This document shows positions 7,896 through 16,235 of a stretch of DNA of 45,324 nt, piece after piece. Position numbers and translations under genes: made by a program. The notes beneath the pieces are model-generated. The model ran no database searches. It saw nothing but the letters and a program-made list of their open reading frames with translations, and was not told where the DNA came from. Location: contig NZZV01000116.1 in NCBI GenBank assembly GCA_002698945.1, positions 1 through 45,324 on the forward strand, written 5' to 3'. Position 1 is the stretch's first letter, and every line of letters starts with the position of its first letter. The DNA is from Acidimicrobiaceae bacterium. Lineage in GTDB: Bacteria; Actinomycetota; Acidimicrobiia; Acidimicrobiales; Ilumatobacteraceae.

Positions 7896-7949
7896 GGATC
7901 GGTACGCGAACCCGAGCCCTCGAGACGCTGGGCCGACCCACAGGACCCC

Positions 7950-8016
7950 GGAGTCAGGTGACCGCCGGTAACGGGTCTCGGCTGCGCCTCGCCCGTCACC
8001 TCCGGCACCCGACCCG
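7950..8016. repeat. Palindromic element, copy C (inverted, about 67 bp)
   Basis: This is a reverse-oriented, slightly longer relative of copies A and B. Read on the minus strand it gives CGGGTCGGGTG, CCGGAGGTGACGG, then CCGTTACCGGCGGT and CACCTGACTCC. Its end lies 2 bp from the smc stop codon. One arm is degraded (CGGAGTCAGGTG instead of CGGGTCAGGTG). Copies B and C face each other across 54 bp. Confidence 0.62.
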
Positions 8017-8018
8017 AG

Positions 8019-11000
8019 CTACCTCGACGTCGCGGTGCTGGCCTTTTCGGTGACGACCTTGCTGCTGCCACCGGGTTGCATGCTCACCCCGAGCAGGCTG
8101 TCGCCGGCTTCCATCGTGCGCTTCTGGTGCGAGACGATCACCAGCTGAGCGTCCTTGCGGAACTCGTTGATGAGACCGAGGAACCGGTGCAGGTTGACGT
8201 CGTCGAGCGCCGCCTCGACCTCGTCCATCACGTAGAACGGCGACGGTCGACTCCGGAACACGGCGAACAGGAACGCCAACGCCGTGAGGCTGCGTTCGCC
8301 ACCGGACAACAGCGACAGCTTCTTCACGTTCTTGCCGCTCGGCTTTGCCTCGACCTCGATGCCCGTGTTGAGCAGATCGTCGGGCACGGTCAGCTTGAGC
8401 TTGCCGGACCCGCCGGGGAACAGGGTGGAGAACAGGCTCGTGAAGTTCTCGCTGACGTCGGCGAACGCCGAGGCGAACACCGTCTGGATCTCCTGGTCGA
8501 CGGCCTTGATGACGCGGCTCAACTCGCGGCGCGTGGACCGGACGTCGTCGAGTTGCTCCTCGAGGAAGGTGTGGCGCTGCTGCAGCTCGTTGTACTCCTC
8601 GAGCGCGAGCGGGTTGATCGGCCCCAGCAGACGCAGCTCTCGATCGAGTTCGCGAACCCGACCGGCGGCGGTCGCTCCTTCGGGGAGCTCCGGCTGTTCG
8701 GTGGCCTCGGCCACCTCGGGTTCGACGTCGAGGTCGCGACGCAGCGTCTCGATCGCCGTCTCCAGCCGCAGCTTCGCCTCGGCCTCCTCCACCTCGGACT
8801 TGTGCAGCTTGTGCCGCAGTTCCTCGAGGCGTCGCTCGGCGTCGGTGCGTCCCTTGCGCGCCGTGTCGAGTGCGGTTGTCAGCCCGCGGACCTCCTCGCT
8901 CTGCCGGCGACGGCGGGTGACGAGGTCGTCGTGTTCGACCTCGATCACGCTGCGATGAGCGTCGACGAGACCGGCGAGCCGGTCGATCGCGACGATCGCC
9001 TGCTCGACCTGCACCCGACGCTCGGCGGCCAACGCCCGGGCCTCCTTGTCGGCTTCGAGGCGCCGTTCGGTCTCGGCGATGCGATGCTCGAGCAACTGCT
9101 TGCGTTCCTGGAGTCCGGCGTTGCGCACCTCGAGTTCGCGGCGACGCGACGACAACACGGCCGCCCGGGCTTCGAGCTCGGCACGCGCCTCGCCGCGCGC
9201 TTTGGCCGCCTCGGCCTCCGCCTGCTCCTCCGCGTCGAGCGTCGGCAACACCGCTTCGAGTTCGGCGATGCGGGTCTGCTCCCCCTCGATGTACGCCGTG
9301 AGTTCCTCGATCGATCGGTCGAGGTTCTCGCACTCGGCGGCCGCTTCGCGTCGCTGCCCGAGCACGCGGGACAACCCTTCGGACGCGGCGGTGAACCGGG
9401 CGTCGTTCTGGTCGAGTTGGCGCGTCAGATCGGCCTCCGCCTGGCGGGCGGCCGACTGACGTTCACGGGCACTCCGGGCTGCTTCTTCCGCCGATGCCAG
9501 CGCACGCGAGCACTGCTCGGCACGCTCCTGTGCGTCGGCGAGCGCGGCGGCGGTCGCACCGCCGGCGGCAGCGCCGACGCGCCACCCGGTCGGGGCGAAG
9601 CGATCCCCCGTCGAGGTGACGATCACCGCATTCGGGTGATCGAGCGCCGCGGCGACAGCGGCGCCGACGGAATCGACGCGCACCGCACCGGCGACGAGCG
9701 CCTCGAGGAGACCGCTCACGCCGGGGCGCCCGGAGCGGACATGGGGCAGCACCGGGTCGCCGACCGGCGGCGGTGAGATCGACCCGGGACGGCCGCCCGC
9801 TGCGAGCACCGCCCCGCTGGTGTCGGACGACTGCAGCGCCTCGAGCGCCCGCTGCGCCGACTCGGGGTTCTCGACGACGACGGCGGTCAGCGCCTCGCCG
9901 AGCGATGCTTCGACGGCCTCCTGCCAGCCGTGGTCGATCTCGACGAGGTCGAGCAGCGTGCCGAGCACCCCGTCGACGCCGGCGAGTCGTTCGGCTCCCG
10001 CCCGGGCGTGGGCGGCGTCGAGCGCGAGCTGCAGCGCCTCGACACGGGCGGCGGCGCGCGAGGCGGCGTCGTTCGCGTCGGCGCGTTCGGCGGTGAGCCG
10101 CTCGACGGCGGCGTCGGCTTCGATCCGCTCCTGTTCGGCGGCGGCGATCTGGTCGACCAGCGGCGACTCGACCGTCTCGGCCTGGGCACAATCGGAACGC
10201 AACCGCTCCGTGTCGGCCTCGAGCTGTTCGATCCTGCGGGTCAACTCGTCGCGGCGAGCCACGCCGCGGCGGCGATCGCTCTCGCTGCGCTCGACACCGT
10301 TGCGAATCGACCGGAGTTCACCGCGCACCTCGGCGGCGGCGCTGGCCGCCTTGGCGCTGCTCTTCTCGTCGTCGAACAGGGTCGGAGCGATCTGCTCGCG
10401 CTCCTCACGGAACGCCGCCTCGTCGGCCTCGAGTTGCTCGCTCTCGGGCTGTACCTGGTCGAGCGCGGCGTCGACCTCGTCGAGTTCGGCGCGGTAGGTG
10501 GCCGCGTCGCCCTCGAGGTTGGCGATGACACCGGCGTCGAGCAGCGACCCCTTGTCCCGTTCCAGCGATCGCTTGCGCTCCGTGAGCACGGCGGCCAGAC
10601 CGCGGGCCCGTTCGCGCAACTGCTCGACCTGCATGAGCCGGTCGGCGACGTCGCTCTCGCCGCGGGCAGACAACTCGGACTCCAGCGACATGATCTCGGT
10701 GTCGAGGCGCGCGAGTTCGGCTTTCAGTTCACCCTCGCGTCGCCCGGCGTCGAGACGGTCGGTGGCGATGGACTCGAGCTTGGTGCGCAGACCGGCGATC
10801 TCGCGTCCGGCGACGAACACACGCAGGGTGCGGAGCTCGACGACGATCTCGCCGTGACGGCGGGCCGCTTCGGCCTGTCGTTCGAGCGGGCGCAGCTGTC
10901 GACGCACCTCCCGCAGGAGATCTTGCAGACGGAGCAGGTTCGCCTCGGTGGCGTCGAGGCGCCGCTCGGCCTTCTCTTTGCGGCGGCGGTACTTGAGGAC

Positions 11001-11498
11001 ACCGGCGGCCTCTTCGATGATGCCACGACGGTCTTCCGGCCGAGCGTTGAGGACGGCATCGATCTGGCCCTGACTCACGATCACGTGCTGCTGACGGCCG
11101 ACACCGGCGTCGGAGAGCAACTCCTGGATGTCGAGCAGGCGGCACGGGGCGCCGTTGATCATGTACTCGCTCTCGCCCGAGCGGAACAGCACGCGGGTGA
11201 GGGTGACCTCGTTGAACTCGACCGGTAGGAGGCCGGAGGTGTTGTCGAGCGTCAGCCCGACCTCGGCGCGGCCGAGCGCCGGGCGCTTCTCGGTGCCGGC
11301 GAAGATGACGTCGTCCATCTTCTGGGAGCGAACCGACTTGGGAGCCTGGGCGCCGAGCACCCACGCGATCGCGTCGACGACGTTGGACTTCCCGGAGCCG
11401 TTCGGCCCGACCACGACGGTGACCCCGGGTTCGAGGTGCATGGTGGTGGAGTCGGCGAACGACTTGAAGCCCTTGAGGGTGAGGCTCTTCACAAACAC
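8019..11498 (-). CDS. smc: Chromosome segregation ATPase SMC
   Basis: An 1159-residue SMC protein that dimerises and organises the chromosome with ScpA/ScpB. The head begins VKSLTLKGFKSFAD with Walker A GPNGSGKSN (31-39) and the QGQIDAVLNARPEDRR segment. Two long coiled coils flank the hinge at about residues 500-650 (VDGVLGTLLDLVEIDHGW). The C-terminal head has signature LSGGERSLTALA and Walker B YVMDEVEAALDD. Start: two in-frame GTG codons lie six bases apart (11498 and 11492). I chose 11498 because a GGGG box sits five bases before it. The region just upstream is filled with 33-bp palindromes. Its order with mutM, rnc and acpP is the usual one. Confidence 0.95.
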   Translation of the reverse strand: MFVKSLTLKGFKSFADSTTMHLEPGVTVVVGPNGSGKSNVVDAIAWVLGAQAPKSVRSQKMDDVIFAGTEKRPALGRAEVGLTLDNTSGLLPVEFNEVTLTRVLFRSGESEYMINGAPCRLLDIQELLSDAGVGRQQHVIVSQGQIDAVLNARPEDRRGIIEEAAGVLKYRRRKEKAERRLDATEANLLRLQDLLREVRRQLRPLERQAEAARRHGEIVVELRTLRVFVAGREIAGLRTKLESIATDRLDAGRREGELKAELARLDTEIMSLESELSARGESDVADRLMQVEQLRERARGLAAVLTERKRSLERDKGSLLDAGVIANLEGDAATYRAELDEVDAALDQVQPESEQLEADEAAFREEREQIAPTLFDDEKSSAKAASAAAEVRGELRSIRNGVERSESDRRRGVARRDELTRRIEQLEADTERLRSDCAQAETVESPLVDQIAAAEQERIEADAAVERLTAERADANDAASRAAARVEALQLALDAAHARAGAERLAGVDGVLGTLLDLVEIDHGWQEAVEASLGEALTAVVVENPESAQRALEALQSSDTSGAVLAAGGRPGSISPPPVGDPVLPHVRSGRPGVSGLLEALVAGAVRVDSVGAAVAAALDHPNAVIVTSTGDRFAPTGWRVGAAAGGATAAALADAQERAEQCSRALASAEEAARSARERQSAARQAEADLTRQLDQNDARFTAASEGLSRVLGQRREAAAECENLDRSIEELTAYIEGEQTRIAELEAVLPTLDAEEQAEAEAAKARGEARAELEARAAVLSSRRRELEVRNAGLQERKQLLEHRIAETERRLEADKEARALAAERRVQVEQAIVAIDRLAGLVDAHRSVIEVEHDDLVTRRRRQSEEVRGLTTALDTARKGRTDAERRLEELRHKLHKSEVEEAEAKLRLETAIETLRRDLDVEPEVAEATEQPELPEGATAAGRVRELDRELRLLGPINPLALEEYNELQQRHTFLEEQLDDVRSTRRELSRVIKAVDQEIQTVFASAFADVSENFTSLFSTLFPGGSGKLKLTVPDDLLNTGIEVEAKPSGKNVKKLSLLSGGERSLTALAFLFAVFRSRPSPFYVMDEVEAALDDVNLHRFLGLINEFRKDAQLVIVSHQKRTMEAGDSLLGVSMQPGGSSKVVTEKASTATSR

Positions 11499-11570
11499 GG
11501 CGGCCCCGAATCTACTGCCCAGTCCGCCGACCCCACCGCATGCCACCCCGAGTCGCTGCGAACCCGACCC

Positions 11571-11642
11571 GGACACCTGGTGGATTAAATCGCCTGGGTG
11601 TCCACCGGTGGACACCTGGTGGATTAAATCGCCTGGGTGTCC
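11571..11642. repeat. Paired 33-bp palindromes, left array, pair 1
   Basis: Two identical 33-bp palindromes (11571-11603, 11610-11642) are separated by ACCGGT. Each has outer arms GGACACC/GGTGTCC and a centre GATTAAATC. The pair lies 73-144 bp upstream of the smc start, on the side from which smc would be transcribed. Confidence 0.9.
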
Positions 11643-11665
11643 GGCGCATCCCGGTCCTGCCCTGC

Positions 11666-11737
11666 GGACACCTGGTGGATTAAATCGCCTGGGTGTCCAC
11701 CGGTGGACGTGTGGGCGATTAAATCGCCTGCACGTCC
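11666..11737. repeat. Paired 33-bp palindromes, left array, pair 2
   Basis: The copy at 11666-11698 is identical to those of pair 1. It is followed by ACCGGT and a variant copy (11705-11737). In the variant the outer arms changed together to GGACGTG/CACGTCC and the inner mismatches became G-C and C-G, giving an uninterrupted 16-bp stem. Pair 2 lies 31 bp from the mutM stop codon. Confidence 0.9.
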
Positions 11738-11768
11738 GGCGCCAGGTGCGGTCGACCTGCGGACAGGC

Positions 11769-12620
11769 TCAGCGTTGGCAGCGGGGGCAGTAGTGGGTGG
11801 AGCGTTGGGCGCTCACGGTGAGACGGATCCAGCCGACGCCACAGGTGCGGCACCGCTCCCCCGGCCGGCCGTACACGTGGTGCGACTCCTGGTAGCTCCC
11901 CCCATCCCCGAACAGGTCGACGTACTGCGCATCACGCAGGGTCGAGCCCCCGGCGTCGATCGCCTCGTTCAGGATGCGATGGATCGCGCCGTGCAACCGT
12001 CGTTCCGACACGGTCGGGAGCTCGTTGCTGATCCGGTCCGGCCGGAGCCGCGCCTCGTGGAGGATCTCGTCGGCGTAGATGTTGCCGATCCCGGCGATCA
12101 GGTGCTGATCGAGCAGGAGGGGCTTGAGCAGACGTCGCCGGGAGCGCAGGATCCGGCGCAACTCCGGCAGCGAGAGGTCGTCGACGATCGGGTCGATGCC
12201 GAGCTGGGCGACGTCGGGCAGCTCGACGTCGACGTGATCGGGATCGAACACCACGACCTCACCGAACGTCCTCGGGTCGACGAACCACAGCTCGCGTCGC
12301 TCCCCTGCCTCGTCCGGATCGAAGTGGAGCACGACGTGGGTGTGCGGTGGTCGGGCGGCGCCGGCGGCGGCCACGAGCACCTGTCCACTCATCCGGAGAT
12401 GGATCATCACCTCGTCACCGGAGTCGAGCGGAAGGAACAGGTATTTGCCGCGCCGGTTGGCGGCGAGGATGGTCGTGCCGGTCAGTCCGTCGATCACGGC
12501 CGCGGCCGACGTACGCCGGACGGTGCGTTCGCGTCCGACCTCGACCCGGCCGACGCGCCGGCCGACGGCGTGCTGTTCGAGACCGCGTCGGACGGTCTCC
12601 ACTTCGGGGAGTTCGGGCAT
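11769..12620 (-). CDS. mutM: Formamidopyrimidine-DNA glycosylase
   Basis: A 283-residue Fpg/MutM that removes 8-oxoguanine and other oxidised purines and nicks the abasic site. The N-terminus MPELPEVETVRRGL supplies the catalytic proline and glutamate. RRGKYLFL carries the conserved lysine. A helix-two-turn-helix follows (LLLDQHLIAGIGNIYADEIL), and a C-terminal zinc finger ends ...STHYCPRCQR. The finger spacing CxxC-17-CxxC is one residue longer than the usual 16. The ATG at 12620 lies 4 bp after the rnc stop, so the two are coupled. It is flanked on its 3' side by the left palindrome array. Confidence 0.95.
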   Translation of the reverse strand: MPELPEVETVRRGLEQHAVGRRVGRVEVGRERTVRRTSAAAVIDGLTGTTILAANRRGKYLFLPLDSGDEVMIHLRMSGQVLVAAAGAARPPHTHVVLHFDPDEAGERRELWFVDPRTFGEVVVFDPDHVDVELPDVAQLGIDPIVDDLSLPELRRILRSRRRLLKPLLLDQHLIAGIGNIYADEILHEARLRPDRISNELPTVSERRLHGAIHRILNEAIDAGGSTLRDAQYVDLFGDGGSYQESHHVYGRPGERCRTCGVGWIRLTVSAQRSTHYCPRCQR

Positions 12621-12624
12621 CGGG

Positions 12625-13308
12625 TCAGGACTCGACGAGCGACTCGTACGCGTCGGCGGCGGCCGCCTGTTCCGCCGACTTCTTCGAGCGCCCCTCGCCG
12701 CGCCCGATCGTCTGACGGGCGATCATCACCTTGGCCCGGAAGGTCTTGTCGTGATCGGGCCCTGTGGAACTCACCTTGTAGTCGGGCGTCGGCTTGCCGT
12801 CGCGGGACAGGAGTTCCTGCAGCGCCGACTTGTAGTCGAGGCGGTGCAGTGAGTCGACCGCATCGTCGAGGCGGTCGGCAAAGAGGCGGTCGATGAAGTC
12901 GAACGCCGCCTGGCGTCCGCCGTCGAGGTAGACCGCACCGATGACCGCCTCCATCGCGTCGGACAGGATCGACGTCTTGTGGCGGCCGCCGGCCGCGTCC
13001 TCACCACGGCCGAGCAACAGGTGGTCACCGATGCCCAGTTCGACGGCCACCTCGGCGAGGGCGTTCGCATTGACGACGCTCTTGCGCAGATCGGTCAGCG
13101 CCCCTTCGGCGAGGTGCTGGAAGTTGTGGAACACGAGATCGGCGACGACCCAGCCGAGTACGGCATCACCGAGGAACTCGAGACGTTCGTTGCTGGCGTG
13201 GGGCTCTGCCGACTCGGCGACCCACGAGCGATGGCACATCGCCCGATGGAGGAGGTCTCGATCGTCGAAACGGTGGCCAAGACGCTGCTCGAGTGCGTCG
13301 AGGCCCAC
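12625..13308 (-). CDS. rnc: Ribonuclease III
   Basis: A 227-residue double-stranded RNA endonuclease acting in rRNA and mRNA processing. The signature NERLEFLGDAVLGWVVAD carries the metal-binding acidic residues. A second acidic cluster lies in SILSDAMEAVIGAVYLDGG, and a C-terminal dsRNA-binding domain runs from DYKSALQELLSRDG to KKSAEQAAAADAYESL. The GTG at 13308 lies 4 bp after the acpP stop, so acpP-rnc-mutM form a tight operon. Given the hairpin repeats around this operon, its own transcript may be a substrate; that is speculation. Confidence 0.95.
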   Translation of the reverse strand: MGLDALEQRLGHRFDDRDLLHRAMCHRSWVAESAEPHASNERLEFLGDAVLGWVVADLVFHNFQHLAEGALTDLRKSVVNANALAEVAVELGIGDHLLLGRGEDAAGGRHKTSILSDAMEAVIGAVYLDGGRQAAFDFIDRLFADRLDDAVDSLHRLDYKSALQELLSRDGKPTPDYKVSSTGPDHDKTFRAKVMIARQTIGRGEGRSKKSAEQAAAADAYESLVES

Positions 13309-13312
13309 GGGA

Positions 13313-13606
13313 TCAGCCGCCGACCCGCTCGTGGACGTAGTCGACGGCGTCGCGCACGGTCTTGAGGTCTTCGAGGTCTTCGTCCTCGATGCGGAACCCG
13401 ACGGTGCGGTCGGCGAGTTCTTCTTCGAGGGATTCGACCAGCTCGATCAACGCAAGCGAATCGGCGTCGAGGTCGTCGACGAAGGACTGCCCTTCGGAGA
13501 TGGTGGCGGGCTCGATCTCGAGGATGTCGGCCAGACGGTCGCGGACGATCTCGAAGATCTCGTCGCGCCCGATCGGGTCGTTGTTGACGTGAGTCTCTGC
13601 AGGCAC
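13313..13606 (-). CDS. acpP: Acyl carrier protein
   Basis: A 97-residue ACP with the phosphopantetheine attachment serine in DDLDADSLALIELVESLEEE. The acidic helices that contact fatty-acid enzymes surround it (FRIEDEDLEDLKTVRDAVDYV). It carries growing acyl chains in fatty acid synthesis and pairs functionally with plsX nearby. The N-terminus (PAETHVNNDPIGRDEIFEI) is about 15 residues longer than minimal ACPs. I chose the GTG at 13606 because a TAGGCT hexamer ends seven bases before it, predicting a leaderless transcript. The right palindrome array begins 75 bp upstream. Confidence 0.92.
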   Translation of the reverse strand: MPAETHVNNDPIGRDEIFEIVRDRLADILEIEPATISEGQSFVDDLDADSLALIELVESLEEELADRTVGFRIEDEDLEDLKTVRDAVDYVHERVGG

Positions 13607-13613
13607 GGCCGAC

Positions 13614-13619
13614 AGCCTA
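13614..13619 (-). promoter_or_regulatory. Predicted -10 element of acpP (leaderless)
   Basis: On the minus strand TAGGCT fits the TANNNT -10 consensus. It is separated by 7 nt from the GTG start, so transcription should begin at or next to the start codon. The same spacing recurs before nine other genes in the window. Confidence 0.6.
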
Positions 13620-13680
13620 ACCACGCCCTCCGGCGAGGTCACCGGAATGGCCCAACCACCCACGGTCCGCCCGCCCGAGC

Positions 13681-13752
13681 GGACACCCAGGCGATTAAAT
13701 CCACCAGGCGTCCACCGGTGGACACACAGGCGATTTAATCGACCAGGCGTCC
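13681..13752. repeat. Paired 33-bp palindromes, right array, pair 1
   Basis: Copies at 13681-13713 and 13720-13752 are joined by ACCGGT. They are close to the reverse complement of the left-array copies: arms GGACACCCAGG, centre GATTAAATC or GATTTAATC, right end GGCGTCC. So this array is inverted relative to the one at 11571-11737. Confidence 0.9.
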
Positions 13753-13771
13753 GCCACTCGTCCGGCCGAGC

Positions 13772-13843
13772 GGACACCCAGGCGATTAAATCCACCAGGT
13801 GTCCACCGGTGGACACACAGGCGATTTAATCGACCAGGTGTCC
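13772..13843. repeat. Paired 33-bp palindromes, right array, pair 2
   Basis: Copies at 13772-13804 and 13811-13843 are joined by ACCGGT. They differ from pair 1 of this array by a right arm GGTGTCC that restores pairing with GGACACC. The array ends 5 bp before the stop codon of the PASTA/propeller gene. Confidence 0.9.
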
Positions 13844-13848
13844 GGGGG

Positions 13849-15750
13849 TCAGGAGAAGGCGGCGGTGGTGACCGTCGGGGTGGATGCTTCGGGCGGGAAC
13901 CACACCCGGAGGCGGTCGCCGAGGGACTCGAACAGGACGCCGCCGTCGAGGCGGGTCCAGATGTAGTCGCCGGCGCCGCAGCACTCGTTGGCGAAGATGT
14001 CGCTCTGCGGCCAGGCCGTCACGGGTTGGTCGTCGACCCGTTCGCCGGTCCGGAGGTCGATCAGTTCCCAGCCCTCCGCGGAGGTGACGATGCCGCGGTC
14101 ACCCTCGATCGCTGCGAACGCCTGGCCACCAGGGCGCGCCCAGAGCCGCTCACCGGTCTGGAGATCGAACGCCACCAGCTGTTCCTCAGGTGGTGTGTCG
14201 TCGACCCACTGGCAGCCCAGGTCGTCGGTCCACGTGAGGCACTCCATCACCAGGACGACCGAGTCGGTGATCGCGCTGTTGAAGCCTTCCCGGCTGATGC
14301 CGCGGAACCCGGGCACCGACCAGATCACCTCGCCGGCGCCATCGAGGAGTTGCAGCGGTTCATCCGAACCGAACGGGTGGTCGAGCGTCGGCGGCAACCG
14401 GCGCAGATCGGCGGGGTCGCTCGACCACGCTTCGCCGGTCCACACCAGATCGGGGACGGAACTGCTCATCGAGGTTCCCGCGACGAGCAGCTCGTCGACC
14501 GTCTCGATCAGTTCATAGCGGACCACGTCGGGGGCGTCGCCGATCGCGAGGTCGGGATACGGGATGTCGGTGGCGGCGAACCCGTCGAGGTCGACGACGC
14601 CGAGGCGGTCACTCGACTCGATGGCGGGCGACGTCCACGACGCACCGACCAGCAGCCGCTGGCCGCTGACGTCCTGGACGACACGATGACCGACCGTGAA
14701 CGGGGCGGAGAAGTCGGAGCCAGTCGCGAGGTCGAACGCGCGCAGCGACGTTGTGTCGTCGTCGGTGGCGACCCACAGCTCGCTCCCGGCGGGAATCAGG
14801 GCGCTCCCCCATCCGGCTCCTTCGAGGCACCGTCGCCAACGAACCGAACCATCGTCGTCGACGATGACCACGGCCAGCACCTCGGCACCGTCGGCGAACT
14901 CGTGCATCGCCAACGCCACGCCGCCGGGGACGACCGCGGTCTGGAGGTACGGCGTCACCGGTCCGGCATCGGTGTCGACCACCGGCAGGCCGATGTCGAG
15001 GGACGGTTCGCTGCCGAGCGTCGTGAAGCGGTCGGCGGCCGCAGGGACGCTGAACCGTTCGGGGTTCTCGCCGAGACGTTCGACGCAGTCCGGGTTCCAC
15101 GCCGTGACGGCGGCACCACCGGCGACGTCCGGGTCGGCATCGGGCACCGTGTCGGGCGGCGGGGCGTCCGACTCGGGCGACACGGCCACCGTCAACTCGA
15201 CGACCGAACCCGACGGGACGAGCGACCTCGGCCCGGCATCGGCGTCGCCGAGCACCGACCAGGCGACCACGACGTCGTGCCCAGCGTTCTCGTCGTCGAC
15301 TTCGACGAGCTGGTACCGCAGGCCGAGGGCCAGCAGGTCCTCGGTGGCAGCACCGACGGTCGATCCCGTCCAGTCCCGCAACTCGACGAGGTCGTCGGCG
15401 ACGGTCGGCTCGCGTGGCGACGTCGGCGACGTCGGCGACGTCGGCGACGAGAGGGTCGTGGCAGGGGTCGGCAGGGTCTCGTCGGGGGTCGTGGCCGGGG
15501 CGGGGGCGCTGTCGTCACCCGAGCGCACCGACACGGCGACGGCTGCAACGGCGACGAGTGCGATGGCGGCGGCCGCCATGAACCAGGTCGCAGGCGTCCG
15601 ACGCCTGCCGCTTGCGGGCGCCGTCGAGTCGACCTCGACACCCTCGGCACGGCGGGTGATGTCGTCCCACTGATCGGGGACGTCGACCCGGTCGAACGCC
15701 TCGAGGCCCATCCGGTCGTCGTGTTCGTGACGGTCGTTGCGATCGCTCAT
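13849..15750 (-). CDS. Membrane-anchored PASTA-like and beta-propeller protein, probable sigma partner
   Basis: A 633-residue protein whose ATG overlaps the ECF sigma stop codon (ATGA), so the two are translationally coupled. Residues 1-50 are charged and cytosolic (LEAFDRVDVPDQWDDITRRAEG). Residues 54-75 form one membrane helix. A Thr/Pro/Ser linker with a tandem SPT repeat follows (100-112). Residues 121-191 look like a PASTA module (VGAATEDLLALGLRYQLVEV, then SLVPSGSVVELTVAVSPE). The rest has repeated aromatic/GD strands (VRWRRCLEGAGWGSALIPAGSELWVATDDD, LVAFDLQTGERLWARPGGQ) of the PQQ/WD-like propeller type. By position it may be an anti-sigma factor with an outside sensor; no canonical zinc anti-sigma motif is visible. 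Confidence 0.82.
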   Translation of the reverse strand: MSDRNDRHEHDDRMGLEAFDRVDVPDQWDDITRRAEGVEVDSTAPASGRRRTPATWFMAAAAIALVAVAAVAVSVRSGDDSAPAPATTPDETLPTPATTLSSPTSPTSPTSPREPTVADDLVELRDWTGSTVGAATEDLLALGLRYQLVEVDDENAGHDVVVAWSVLGDADAGPRSLVPSGSVVELTVAVSPESDAPPPDTVPDADPDVAGGAAVTAWNPDCVERLGENPERFSVPAAADRFTTLGSEPSLDIGLPVVDTDAGPVTPYLQTAVVPGGVALAMHEFADGAEVLAVVIVDDDGSVRWRRCLEGAGWGSALIPAGSELWVATDDDTTSLRAFDLATGSDFSAPFTVGHRVVQDVSGQRLLVGASWTSPAIESSDRLGVVDLDGFAATDIPYPDLAIGDAPDVVRYELIETVDELLVAGTSMSSSVPDLVWTGEAWSSDPADLRRLPPTLDHPFGSDEPLQLLDGAGEVIWSVPGFRGISREGFNSAITDSVVLVMECLTWTDDLGCQWVDDTPPEEQLVAFDLQTGERLWARPGGQAFAAIEGDRGIVTSAEGWELIDLRTGERVDDQPVTAWPQSDIFANECCGAGDYIWTRLDGGVLFESLGDRLRVWFPPEASTPTVTTAAFS

Positions 15751-16235
15751 CGGTCGTTCTCCAGGATCTCGCGGGCTCGTTCGGTCGCTCGATGGAGTCG
15801 CACGCGGATGCGGCCGGCGGGTTCGCCGAGCACTTTCGCGAGTTCGCCGGGCTTCCACCCGCCGACGTGGCAGAGCACGATCAGTTCCCGATCCTGCTCG
15901 GAGAGCACGGCGAGCCGTACCAACAGCTCGCCGAGACCGTCGTGACCGGCGACGTCGACGTCGGCGGCGATCGGGACGACGGGTTCGACCCGCCGCCGTC
16001 GCTGCAACTCGCCGCGGGCGATCGCGAACGCCGACCGCCACACCCAGGCCGCGACGTCGCGGACCTCGTCGCCGCGTCGGAGCACCTGCGCGAAGGCTTC
16101 GGCGGTCGCCTCGTCGGCGACGTCACGCGATCCGCTGAACGCGTAGATCGACCGCCACAGACGCGCGTGATCGGTGTTGTACACCGCTCGCACCCGCTCG
16201 ACGACCTGATCGGTCTGCATCACCACTGATTCCAT
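15747..16235 (-). CDS. ECF-type RNA polymerase sigma factor
   Basis: A sigma-70 family regulator of about 162 residues. Region 2 is visible in TDHARLWRSIYAFSGSRDVADEATAEAFAQVLRRGDEVRDVAAWVWRSAFAIARGELQRRRR. Region 4 is visible in LLVRLAVLSEQDRELIVLCHVGGWKPGELAKVLGEPAGRIRVRLHRATERAREIL. It would direct polymerase to a small set of promoters, probably including its own. I start it at ATG 16235; ATG 16220 is also possible. A longer reading would run into the repeat array at 16285-16545. The downstream coupled gene is the likely partner or anti-sigma. Confidence 0.87.
   Translation of the reverse strand: MESVVMQTDQVVERVRAVYNTDHARLWRSIYAFSGSRDVADEATAEAFAQVLRRGDEVRDVAAWVWRSAFAIARGELQRRRRVEPVVPIAADVDVAGHDGLGELLVRLAVLSEQDRELIVLCHVGGWKPGELAKVLGEPAGRIRVRLHRATERAREILENDR

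What the first reader, a model, noticed from the sequence alone, without database searches (positions are those of the whole stretch)
11571..13843. Inverted arrays of ACCGGT-joined 33-bp palindromes flank the mutM-rnc-acpP operon
Eight 33-bp palindromes occur as four pairs. Every pair is spaced by exactly ACCGGT (33-6-33), with two pairs on each side of the 1.84-kb acpP-rnc-mutM operon. The left array (11571-11737) is in one orientation and the right array (13681-13843) in the opposite one. No other copies were seen in the window. A paired, phase-locked, inverted flank is unlike simple scattered REP sequences. It could be a mobile-element relic, a topological or recombination boundary, an RNase III processing system next to rnc itself, or a regulator array for smc and acpP.
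Basis: partly seen in the sequence, partly recalled or inferred. Interest (0 to 1): 0.85.

Follow-up and report, generated by a model that had tools for sequence, protein, structure and literature searches.

The report
Dispersed paired-palindrome arrays in Ilumatobacter
The eight palindromes are real, but they belong to a repeat family scattered through the genome of this actinobacterium and two close relatives, and each array lies between two stretches whose composition resembles a transcription stop signal facing both ways.

Summary
The operon-specific reading does not. The unit occurs 110 times in the genome (up to 3 mismatches) and exactly in 2 of 9 congeners, but in none of 139 more distant genomes searched. 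It forms arrays of 1-8 units; 105 of 155 neighbour gaps are 6 bp.

Many positions are inherited: 14 of 29 own-genome arrays lie on the same side of the same gene as an array in G001. The sequence has changed in concert: CCGATTNAATCGG is in 39 of 40 G004 units and in none of 181 in G000 and G001. Three RAYT-type transposases examined are flanked by other repeats.

All 59 arrays with enough flank are bordered by C-rich, G-poor sequence on the strands reading into them, whatever the gene direction. Ordinary hairpins there show this, more weakly, only on the side where a gene ends.

Best reading: a new REP/BIME-like family read by an unknown factor, acting as a two-sided, Rho-type transcription barrier. 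The family is shown; the barrier is inferred. The main rival is a selfish repeat. The RNase III, smc/acpP-regulator and composite-element ideas are not supported.

The parts
11571..11603 (+). 33-bp unit 1, left array, polarity +
11604..11609 (.). ACCGGT spacer
11610..11642 (+). 33-bp unit 2, left array
11666..11698 (+). 33-bp unit 3, left array
11699..11704 (.). ACCGGT spacer
11705..11737 (+). 33-bp unit 4, left array, nearly perfect palindrome
11493..11570 (.). C-rich/G-poor approach on the + strand to the left array (78 nt, C/G 2.24)
11738..11815 (.). C-rich/G-poor approach on the - strand to the left array (78 nt, C/G 1.95)
13681..13713 (-). 33-bp unit 5, right array, polarity -
13714..13719 (.). 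ACCGGT spacer
13720..13752 (-). 33-bp unit 6, right array
13772..13804 (-). 33-bp unit 7, right array
13805..13810 (.). ACCGGT spacer
13811..13843 (-). 33-bp unit 8, right array
13603..13680 (.). C-rich/G-poor approach on the + strand to the right array (78 nt, C/G 1.76)
13844..13921 (.). C-rich/G-poor approach on the - strand to the right array (78 nt, C/G 2.05)

Best explanation
What it is (shown): members of a dispersed extragenic family of tandem paired palindromes, REP/BIME-like, found in these searches in three closely related Ilumatobacter genomes, inherited at many positions, with array-bearing and empty versions of others. How it works (inferred): the core GATTNAATC with GGA/TCC ends is read by a sequence-specific trans-acting DNA-binding factor, not identified. 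Occupied units at 39-bp period make an obstacle to RNA polymerase, and the C-rich, G-poor tracts on both sides load Rho on any transcript that runs into the array. Each array would thus be an orientation-independent, two-sided transcription terminator or insulator between neighbouring genes. In the window one such barrier lies between mutM and smc and one between acpP and the gene upstream of it.
For: Genome-wide copies: 110 units with up to 3 mismatches, reversed-pattern control 0; exact units 85 in G000, 46 in G001, 6 in G004, 0 in the other 146 of 149 genomes. Concerted change: CCGATTNAATCGG in 39 of 40 G004 units, 0 of 104 in G000 and 0 of 77 in G001, at positions not fixed by the search pattern (11, 12, 22, 23). 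Inheritance: 14 of 29 G000 arrays lie on the same side of the same gene as a G001 array, and 8 of 14 G004 arrays as a G000 array; polarity agrees in 26 of 29 such pairs, 1 opposite, 2 undecided. Barrier signature: C-G skew over 60 nt reading into the array is 0.338 on 75 sides facing gene ends and 0.347 on 48 sides facing gene starts; ordinary hairpins give 0.139 (n=96) and -0.044 (n=86); gaps without a hairpin 0.054 (n=496) and -0.002 (n=744). The adjacent 78 nt exceed C/G 1.25 on 112 of 125 array sides against 216 of 810 control sides, and on both sides for 48 of 59 arrays against 27 of 405. The halo decays over about 100 nt and extends into coding sequence facing the array. Among 57 arrays with both neighbours known, 20 lie between convergent genes (68 of 399 gaps in the same loci, p 0.0035) and 8 between divergent ones (115 of 399, p 0.017) (the baseline includes the array gaps). 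A Rho gene is found in complete G001. RhoTermPredict (PMC6407284, passages) describes Rho sites as 78 nt of C>G followed by a pause site.
Against: No transcript data. The halo is as strong between divergent genes, where no gene transcript arrives (mean 0.41, n=8), so it may belong to the element or be a mutational footprint rather than reflect selection for termination. No binding protein was identified. The near-invariance of core and ends is partly built in: units were found with a pattern containing those 16 positions, and nearly all kept units have 0-2 mismatches. One further orthologous pair found later (L087 against L119) has opposite polarity. Rho_RNA_bind was found in 6 of 10 genomes of the genus and not in G000 or G004 (82% and 79% complete), nor in G003 (98%) or G007. 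A review (PMC12288462, passages) says M. tuberculosis Rho recognises purine-rich sequences, so rut rules may not transfer. Several sites occupied in G000 or G004 are empty in G001, with gaps as short as 1-31 bp and no other hairpin evident by eye.
Confidence: 0.4

Rival explanations
1. Selfish REP-like miniature element: an imperfect-hairpin repeat that spreads by an unidentified transposase or by recombination, tolerated near gene 3' ends, without host function; the C/G halo is part of, or a by-product of, the element.
For: Arrays with empty counterpart sites in G001. One array (L063) between overlapping genes is bracketed by a 31-of-32-bp direct duplication of the site; in the 60-nt flanks 3 of 59 arrays reach a direct-repeat score of 11 against 0.3% of random flank pairs, though one of the three (L047) is unit-like sequence. 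Bias to gene 3' ends as reported for REPs (PMC3733652). The G.T-rich strand folds better in 101 of 104 units of G000 and 72 of 77 of G001.
Against: No Y1 transposase locus examined has the unit nearby, and three have their own repeats. The folding bias is absent in G004 (18 of 36). In the 120-nt flanks only 1 of 58 arrays shows a clear duplication.
Confidence: 0.33
2. Binding array for a nucleoid or chromosome-organising protein, with no role in termination.
For: Dyad core with strict spacing; pair-to-pair gaps cluster at 17-19 and 28-29 bp (26 of 38 values; 0 of 2000 jittered sets as periodic in the 9-13 bp range). In G001 polarity follows the replichore if oriC is taken at dnaA (4.68 Mb) and the terminus opposite: left 12 of 12 minus, right 9 plus and 4 minus, Fisher 0.0005.
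Against: The best-fitting gap period over 4-16 bp was 4.95, not a helical turn, and orthologous arrays are not independent. Arrays of G000 and G004 without a G001 counterpart, mapped on G001, agree with the replichore rule in 8 and disagree in 6 (my tally). It does not explain the composition halo.
Confidence: 0.15
3. The C/G halo is a strand-asymmetric mutational footprint of something that happens at the array (R-loops, outward transcription, repair), not a signal.
For: The halo is symmetric and independent of gene orientation; the two flanks of one array are not specifically complementary (own against cross, permutation p 0.21).
Against: C rises to 61% with G 20%, A 12% and T 7% on the approaching strand, which simple C-to-T deamination would not give; ordinary hairpins show a weaker halo only on the transcribed side.
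Confidence: 0.15
4. An RNase III processing or autoregulatory system, or a regulator array for smc and acpP, specific to this operon.
For: Proximity to rnc, smc and acpP.
Against: 27 other arrays analysed in the own genome next to other genes; the left array is absent in G001; polarity is not tied to gene direction (codirectional arrays 8 plus/11 minus and 5/5).
Confidence: 0.02
5. A composite mobile element with the operon as cargo.
For: Arrays on both sides in G000 and, on separate contigs, in G004; 3 of 5 close array pairs in G000 are inverted.
Against: The acpP-rnc-mutM-smc order is the same without arrays in G003, G005, G008 and G009; no transposase lies between the window arrays.
Confidence: 0.01

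Closest known systems
REP / BIME (repetitive extragenic palindromes, GTAG superfamily, with RAYT transposases)
   Same: 20-40-bp imperfect palindromes in high copy, extragenic, near gene 3' ends, clustered, lineage-specific, known as IS targets (PMC3733652 and PMC2817692)
   Different: No GTAG next to any of 221 units, no RAYT flanked by the unit among those examined, head-to-tail units instead of inverted doublets, 39-bp period, conserved centre with variable stem, strong C/G halo
CGTC-tagged REPs (Di Nocera 2013)
   Same: No dedicated transposase known; units here often end in CGTC- or TGTC-like letters
   Different: There the tag is unpaired and units form head-head dimers; here GGAC mostly pairs with GTCC and units are head-to-tail. 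The paper's main text does not contain the word Actinobacteria
Rho-dependent terminators (rut plus pause site)
   Same: About 78 nt of C-rich, G-poor sequence followed by hairpins or an obstacle (PMC6407284, passages)
   Different: Present on both strands at one locus and attached to a dispersed repeat; no experimental termination data

Membership tests
GTAG REP/RAYT system | terminal GTAG tetranucleotide | tested here: not met
   0 of 221 units have GTAG or CTAC within 6 nt outside the unit; 218 of 221 begin GGA and end TCC, partly by choice of search pattern
GTAG REP/RAYT system | RAYT gene flanked by two inverted copies of the repeat | tested here: not met
   No unit at up to 4 mismatches in the ten Y1_Tnp loci fetched of 11 matches, nor in the longer stretches L077, L078, L092, L093; G001, G004 C79 and G006 copies carry other repeats. 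The other copies were not examined for repeats of their own.
REP/BIME in the broad sense | short extragenic palindrome in high copy, clustered | tested here: met
   110 units; 29 arrays analysed in G000
CGTC REP | unpaired CGTC tag, head-head dimers | tested here: not met
   The C4-G30 pair forms in 104 of 104 G000 and 76 of 77 G001 units but only 11 of 40 G004 units; 59 of 61 arrays of two or more units have one polarity, 1 mixed, 1 ambiguous
MITE | terminal inverted repeats of a parent transposon and target duplication | tested here: inconclusive
   One 31/32-bp duplication among 58 arrays, a weaker candidate in L054; no parent transposon identified
Intrinsic terminator | hairpin followed by a run of U | tested here: not met
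   The first 15 intergenic nt beyond arrays average 61% G and 12% T reading away from the array (complement of the values)
Rho-dependent terminator | about 78 nt C>G upstream of a pause site | tested here: met
   C/G > 1.25 on 112 of 125 array sides against 216 of 810 control sides
Rho-dependent terminator | transcription ends there and depends on Rho | not testable with these tools
   needs Term-seq or RNA-seq with Rho inhibition
Replichore-polar motif (KOPS-like; name recalled) | orientation follows the replication direction | tested here: inconclusive
   G001 21 of 25 in agreement; arrays without a G001 counterpart 8 of 14 (tally)

The most novel reading that the evidence does not exclude
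A portable two-sided transcription barrier: a lineage-specific palindrome array, bound by a dedicated host protein with which its sequence co-evolves, that carries or induces Rho-loading C-rich tracts on both strands and so insulates neighbouring genes wherever it lands.
Probability: 0.25. Interest if true: 0.72.

Novelty: new variant of a known kind. Interest (0 to 1): 0.5.

Why it matters
It would be a REP-like family without an evident RAYT in a class (Acidimicrobiia) for which the listings of three searches of an open-access library showed me no description. It gives a comparative system: three related genomes with shared and unshared arrays. The composition halo makes an old question, whether dispersed palindromes end transcription, testable by comparing occupied and empty sites.

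Tried and rejected
RAYT as mobiliser of the unit: not supported for the copies examined. No unit lies in the ten loci fetched, and three copies carry their own repeats. G001 has one Y1_Tnp match.

Replichore polarity as a general rule: attractive in G001 (12 of 12 and 9 of 13), but arrays without a G001 counterpart split 8 to 6. That split is my tally, and it leaves out L060 and L082 (only paralogue-like hits), L076 (polarity near zero) and L087, which turned out to have a G001 counterpart. The binomial values printed used 8 to 7, before L087 was moved; I do not rely on them.

Completeness: place lists were capped. Two G001 arrays (3036070, 4441352) were found late; they enter the polarity count but not the composition or context counts. 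A G004 array at a contig start (C397) was seen only and not fetched. L058 and L065 are contig-end pieces that match the same G001 array, so the 14 shared G000 arrays are 13 positions in G001. By the looser test (either side of the same gene) the count is 15 of 29.

RNA-hairpin function: the G.T-rich strand folds better in G000 and G001 but not in G004; pairs 11-23 and 12-22 are mostly mismatched in G000 and G001; polarity is unrelated to gene direction.

Flank pairing: own flanks no more complementary than cross pairs. Direct-repeat scan: the first version had a trimming error and was redone. In a small sample, six GATGTCAGACATC pairs in G001 shared the halo (6 of 6) and so did GGGTCAGGTG clusters (15 of 17), but gaps holding other repeat families give only about 0.05 in the larger set. 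No match in Rfam at gathering scores, plasmids, phages or, for the pair pattern, viral contigs.
Full report
OBSERVATION. The eight units, four ACCGGT spacers and two inverted arrays are exactly as described. GATTAAATC is found 8 times in the window against 0.01 expected. The genes are smc, mutM, rnc and acpP by Pfam domains; the gene beyond the right array has no Pfam match at 1e-5, and the next one has a sigma-70 region 4.

DISTRIBUTION. The window is contig C138 of a 4.36-Mb, 226-contig, 82%-complete assembly. The exact junction GTCCACCGGTGGAC occurs 32 times. The unit GGAC-N8-GATTWAATC-N8-GTCC occurs 110 times with up to 3 mismatches, with none for the reversed control pattern. Among 149 genomes searched including the own one, exact units occur in 3: G000 (85), G001 (46, one complete 4.78-Mb contig) and G004 (6); 7 other congeners and 139 genomes of the family and order have none. 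G004 contig C275 has the length and unit positions of JAGQSS010000031.1, labelled Ilumatobacter sp. HKST-UBA13; the genus is in class Acidimicrobiia. That record was the only hit of a pair pattern in the GTDB r220 contigs, where records of the own genome or very near ones may be left out. By MutM identity G001 and G004 are the closest congeners (93% and 92%, the others 63-83%).

ANATOMY. I analysed 66 arrays (29 in G000, 23 in G001, 14 in G004), with 221 units; 28 arrays have four units and the range is 1-8. Of 155 gaps between neighbouring units 105 are 6 bp, and 62 of those are ACCGGT. Larger gaps cluster at 17-19 bp (17 of 38 per-array values) and 28-29 bp (9 of 38), but the best-fitting period in a 4-16 bp scan was 4.95 and orthologous arrays are not independent. 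Units are polar, with TGG in one half and CAG in the other; of 61 arrays with two or more units 59 have one polarity, 1 is mixed and 1 ambiguous. GATT.AATC and GGA/TCC are nearly invariant, partly because the search pattern contains them. Positions 11, 12 and 23, which it does not contain, differ wholesale between G004 and the other two genomes: CCGATTNAATCGG is in 39 of 40, 0 of 104 and 0 of 77 units.

INHERITANCE AND TURNOVER. 14 of 29 G000 arrays have an array on the same side of the same gene in complete G001 (13 G001 positions), and 8 of 14 G004 arrays have one in G000. Reciprocal best protein pairs within the fetched stretches have a median identity of 89-90%. Polarity agrees in 26 of 29 orthologous pairs, with 1 opposite and 2 undecided; a further pair found later (L087, L119) is opposite. 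In the window the left array is shared with G004 but not with G001, and the right array with both; for the right array in G004 the evidence is one unit at a contig start. The seven other congeners have no unit at this locus. At L063 two genes 1 bp apart in G001 are separated in G000 by an array with its own C-rich and G-rich flanks, between two copies of a 32-bp stretch that match at 31 positions. This is the only clear duplication among 58 arrays; at shorter range 3 of 59 exceed a score that 0.3% of random pairs reach. A general insertion mechanism is not established.

NOT A RAYT SYSTEM AS FAR AS TESTED. Y1_Tnp genes occur in 8 of 10 genomes of the genus, including 5 that lack exact units. 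Ten of the 11 matches were fetched, with up to 1.5 kb on each side; none has a unit, nor do the longer stretches L077, L078, L092 and L093. The G001, G004 (C79) and G006 copies are flanked by copies of other repeats; the rest were not examined for that. Nunvar et al. (PMC2817692, passages) state that RAYT genes are always flanked by two inverted REPs.

COMPOSITION HALO. On the strand reading into the array the intergenic flank is 61% C and 20% G within 15 nt, and the skew decays over about 100 nt; the same trend continues into coding sequence whose end faces the array. All 59 of the 66 arrays that have at least 40 nt of flank on each side show it, in every gene arrangement. Other intergenic midpoints average 0.01 (114 of 215 positive). 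To ask whether this resembles termination I fetched a further 800 kb of G001 and compared, over all stretches held for the three genomes, the strongest perfect hairpin (stem 8 or more, loop 3-8) of each gap without arrays and without five motifs of other repeat families. These hairpins show a C>G approach on the side where a gene ends (0.139, 74 of 96 positive) and not on the other side (-0.044, 37 of 86). Arrays are 2.4 times stronger and two-sided (0.338 and 0.347). By the 78-nt C/G measure modelled on RhoTermPredict (PMC6407284, passages), 48 of 59 arrays pass 1.25 on both sides against 27 of 405 other intergenic sites. Hence the two-sided terminator reading. Against it: the halo is equally strong between divergent genes, no transcripts were available, and Rho preference may differ in actinobacteria (PMC12288462, passages).

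COMPARISON. The family resembles REP/BIME repeats in size, copy number, location and lineage restriction, but fails the GTAG, RAYT-flank and inverted-doublet criteria. I therefore call it a new REP-like variant and not a member of the GTAG or CGTC superfamilies. From Di Nocera et al. (PMC3733652) I read parts 1-3 of the 8 parts of the text plus passages. For novelty I saw only search listings: 15 of 247 papers, 4 of 4, 0 found, in an open-access library.

WHAT IS SHOWN AND WHAT IS INFERRED. Shown: the repeat family, its restriction to three of the genomes searched, shared positions, concerted sequence change, polarity, halo and gene-end bias. Inferred: a binding protein, an obstacle to RNA polymerase, Rho loading, and insulation.

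Noticed in passing
L043:7301-8200 and L047:8110-8940 (G001): Nearly the same transposase (IS5-like by my recollection) sits inside or directly beside arrays at two places, as if the arrays were its target.
   Followed up: partly
L078:9884-11032 (G001), L092:3238-4276 (G004), L029:997-1925 (G006): RAYT-type genes are each flanked by a different family of palindromic or inverted repeats.
   Followed up: partly
L040, L048, L049, L053, L112, L116 (G001): Another paired palindrome family with centre GATGTC(A/T)GACATC, about 56 bp apart; 9 core matches in 321 kb of G001, none in 382 kb of G000 or 122 kb of G004.
   Followed up: no
L038, L073, L090: A gene of about 272 codons near a Clp-like ATPase gene has an array on both sides in all three genomes, at nearly the same distance (859-860 bp).
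   Followed up: partly
G001 whole contig: Array polarity follows the inferred replichore in this genome (21 of 25), although arrays of the two relatives without a G001 counterpart do not.
   Followed up: partly
L063, around 7935-8200 (G000): An array between two genes that nearly abut in G001, with a 32-bp direct duplication that keeps both the stop and the start.
   Followed up: yes
G000:C46:18491-18814 (L031): The own genome's only Y1_Tnp match has a broken reading frame.
   Followed up: no
window 13849-16235, minus strand: A sigma factor-like gene followed by a large gene without Pfam match, possibly its regulator (a guess).
   Followed up: no
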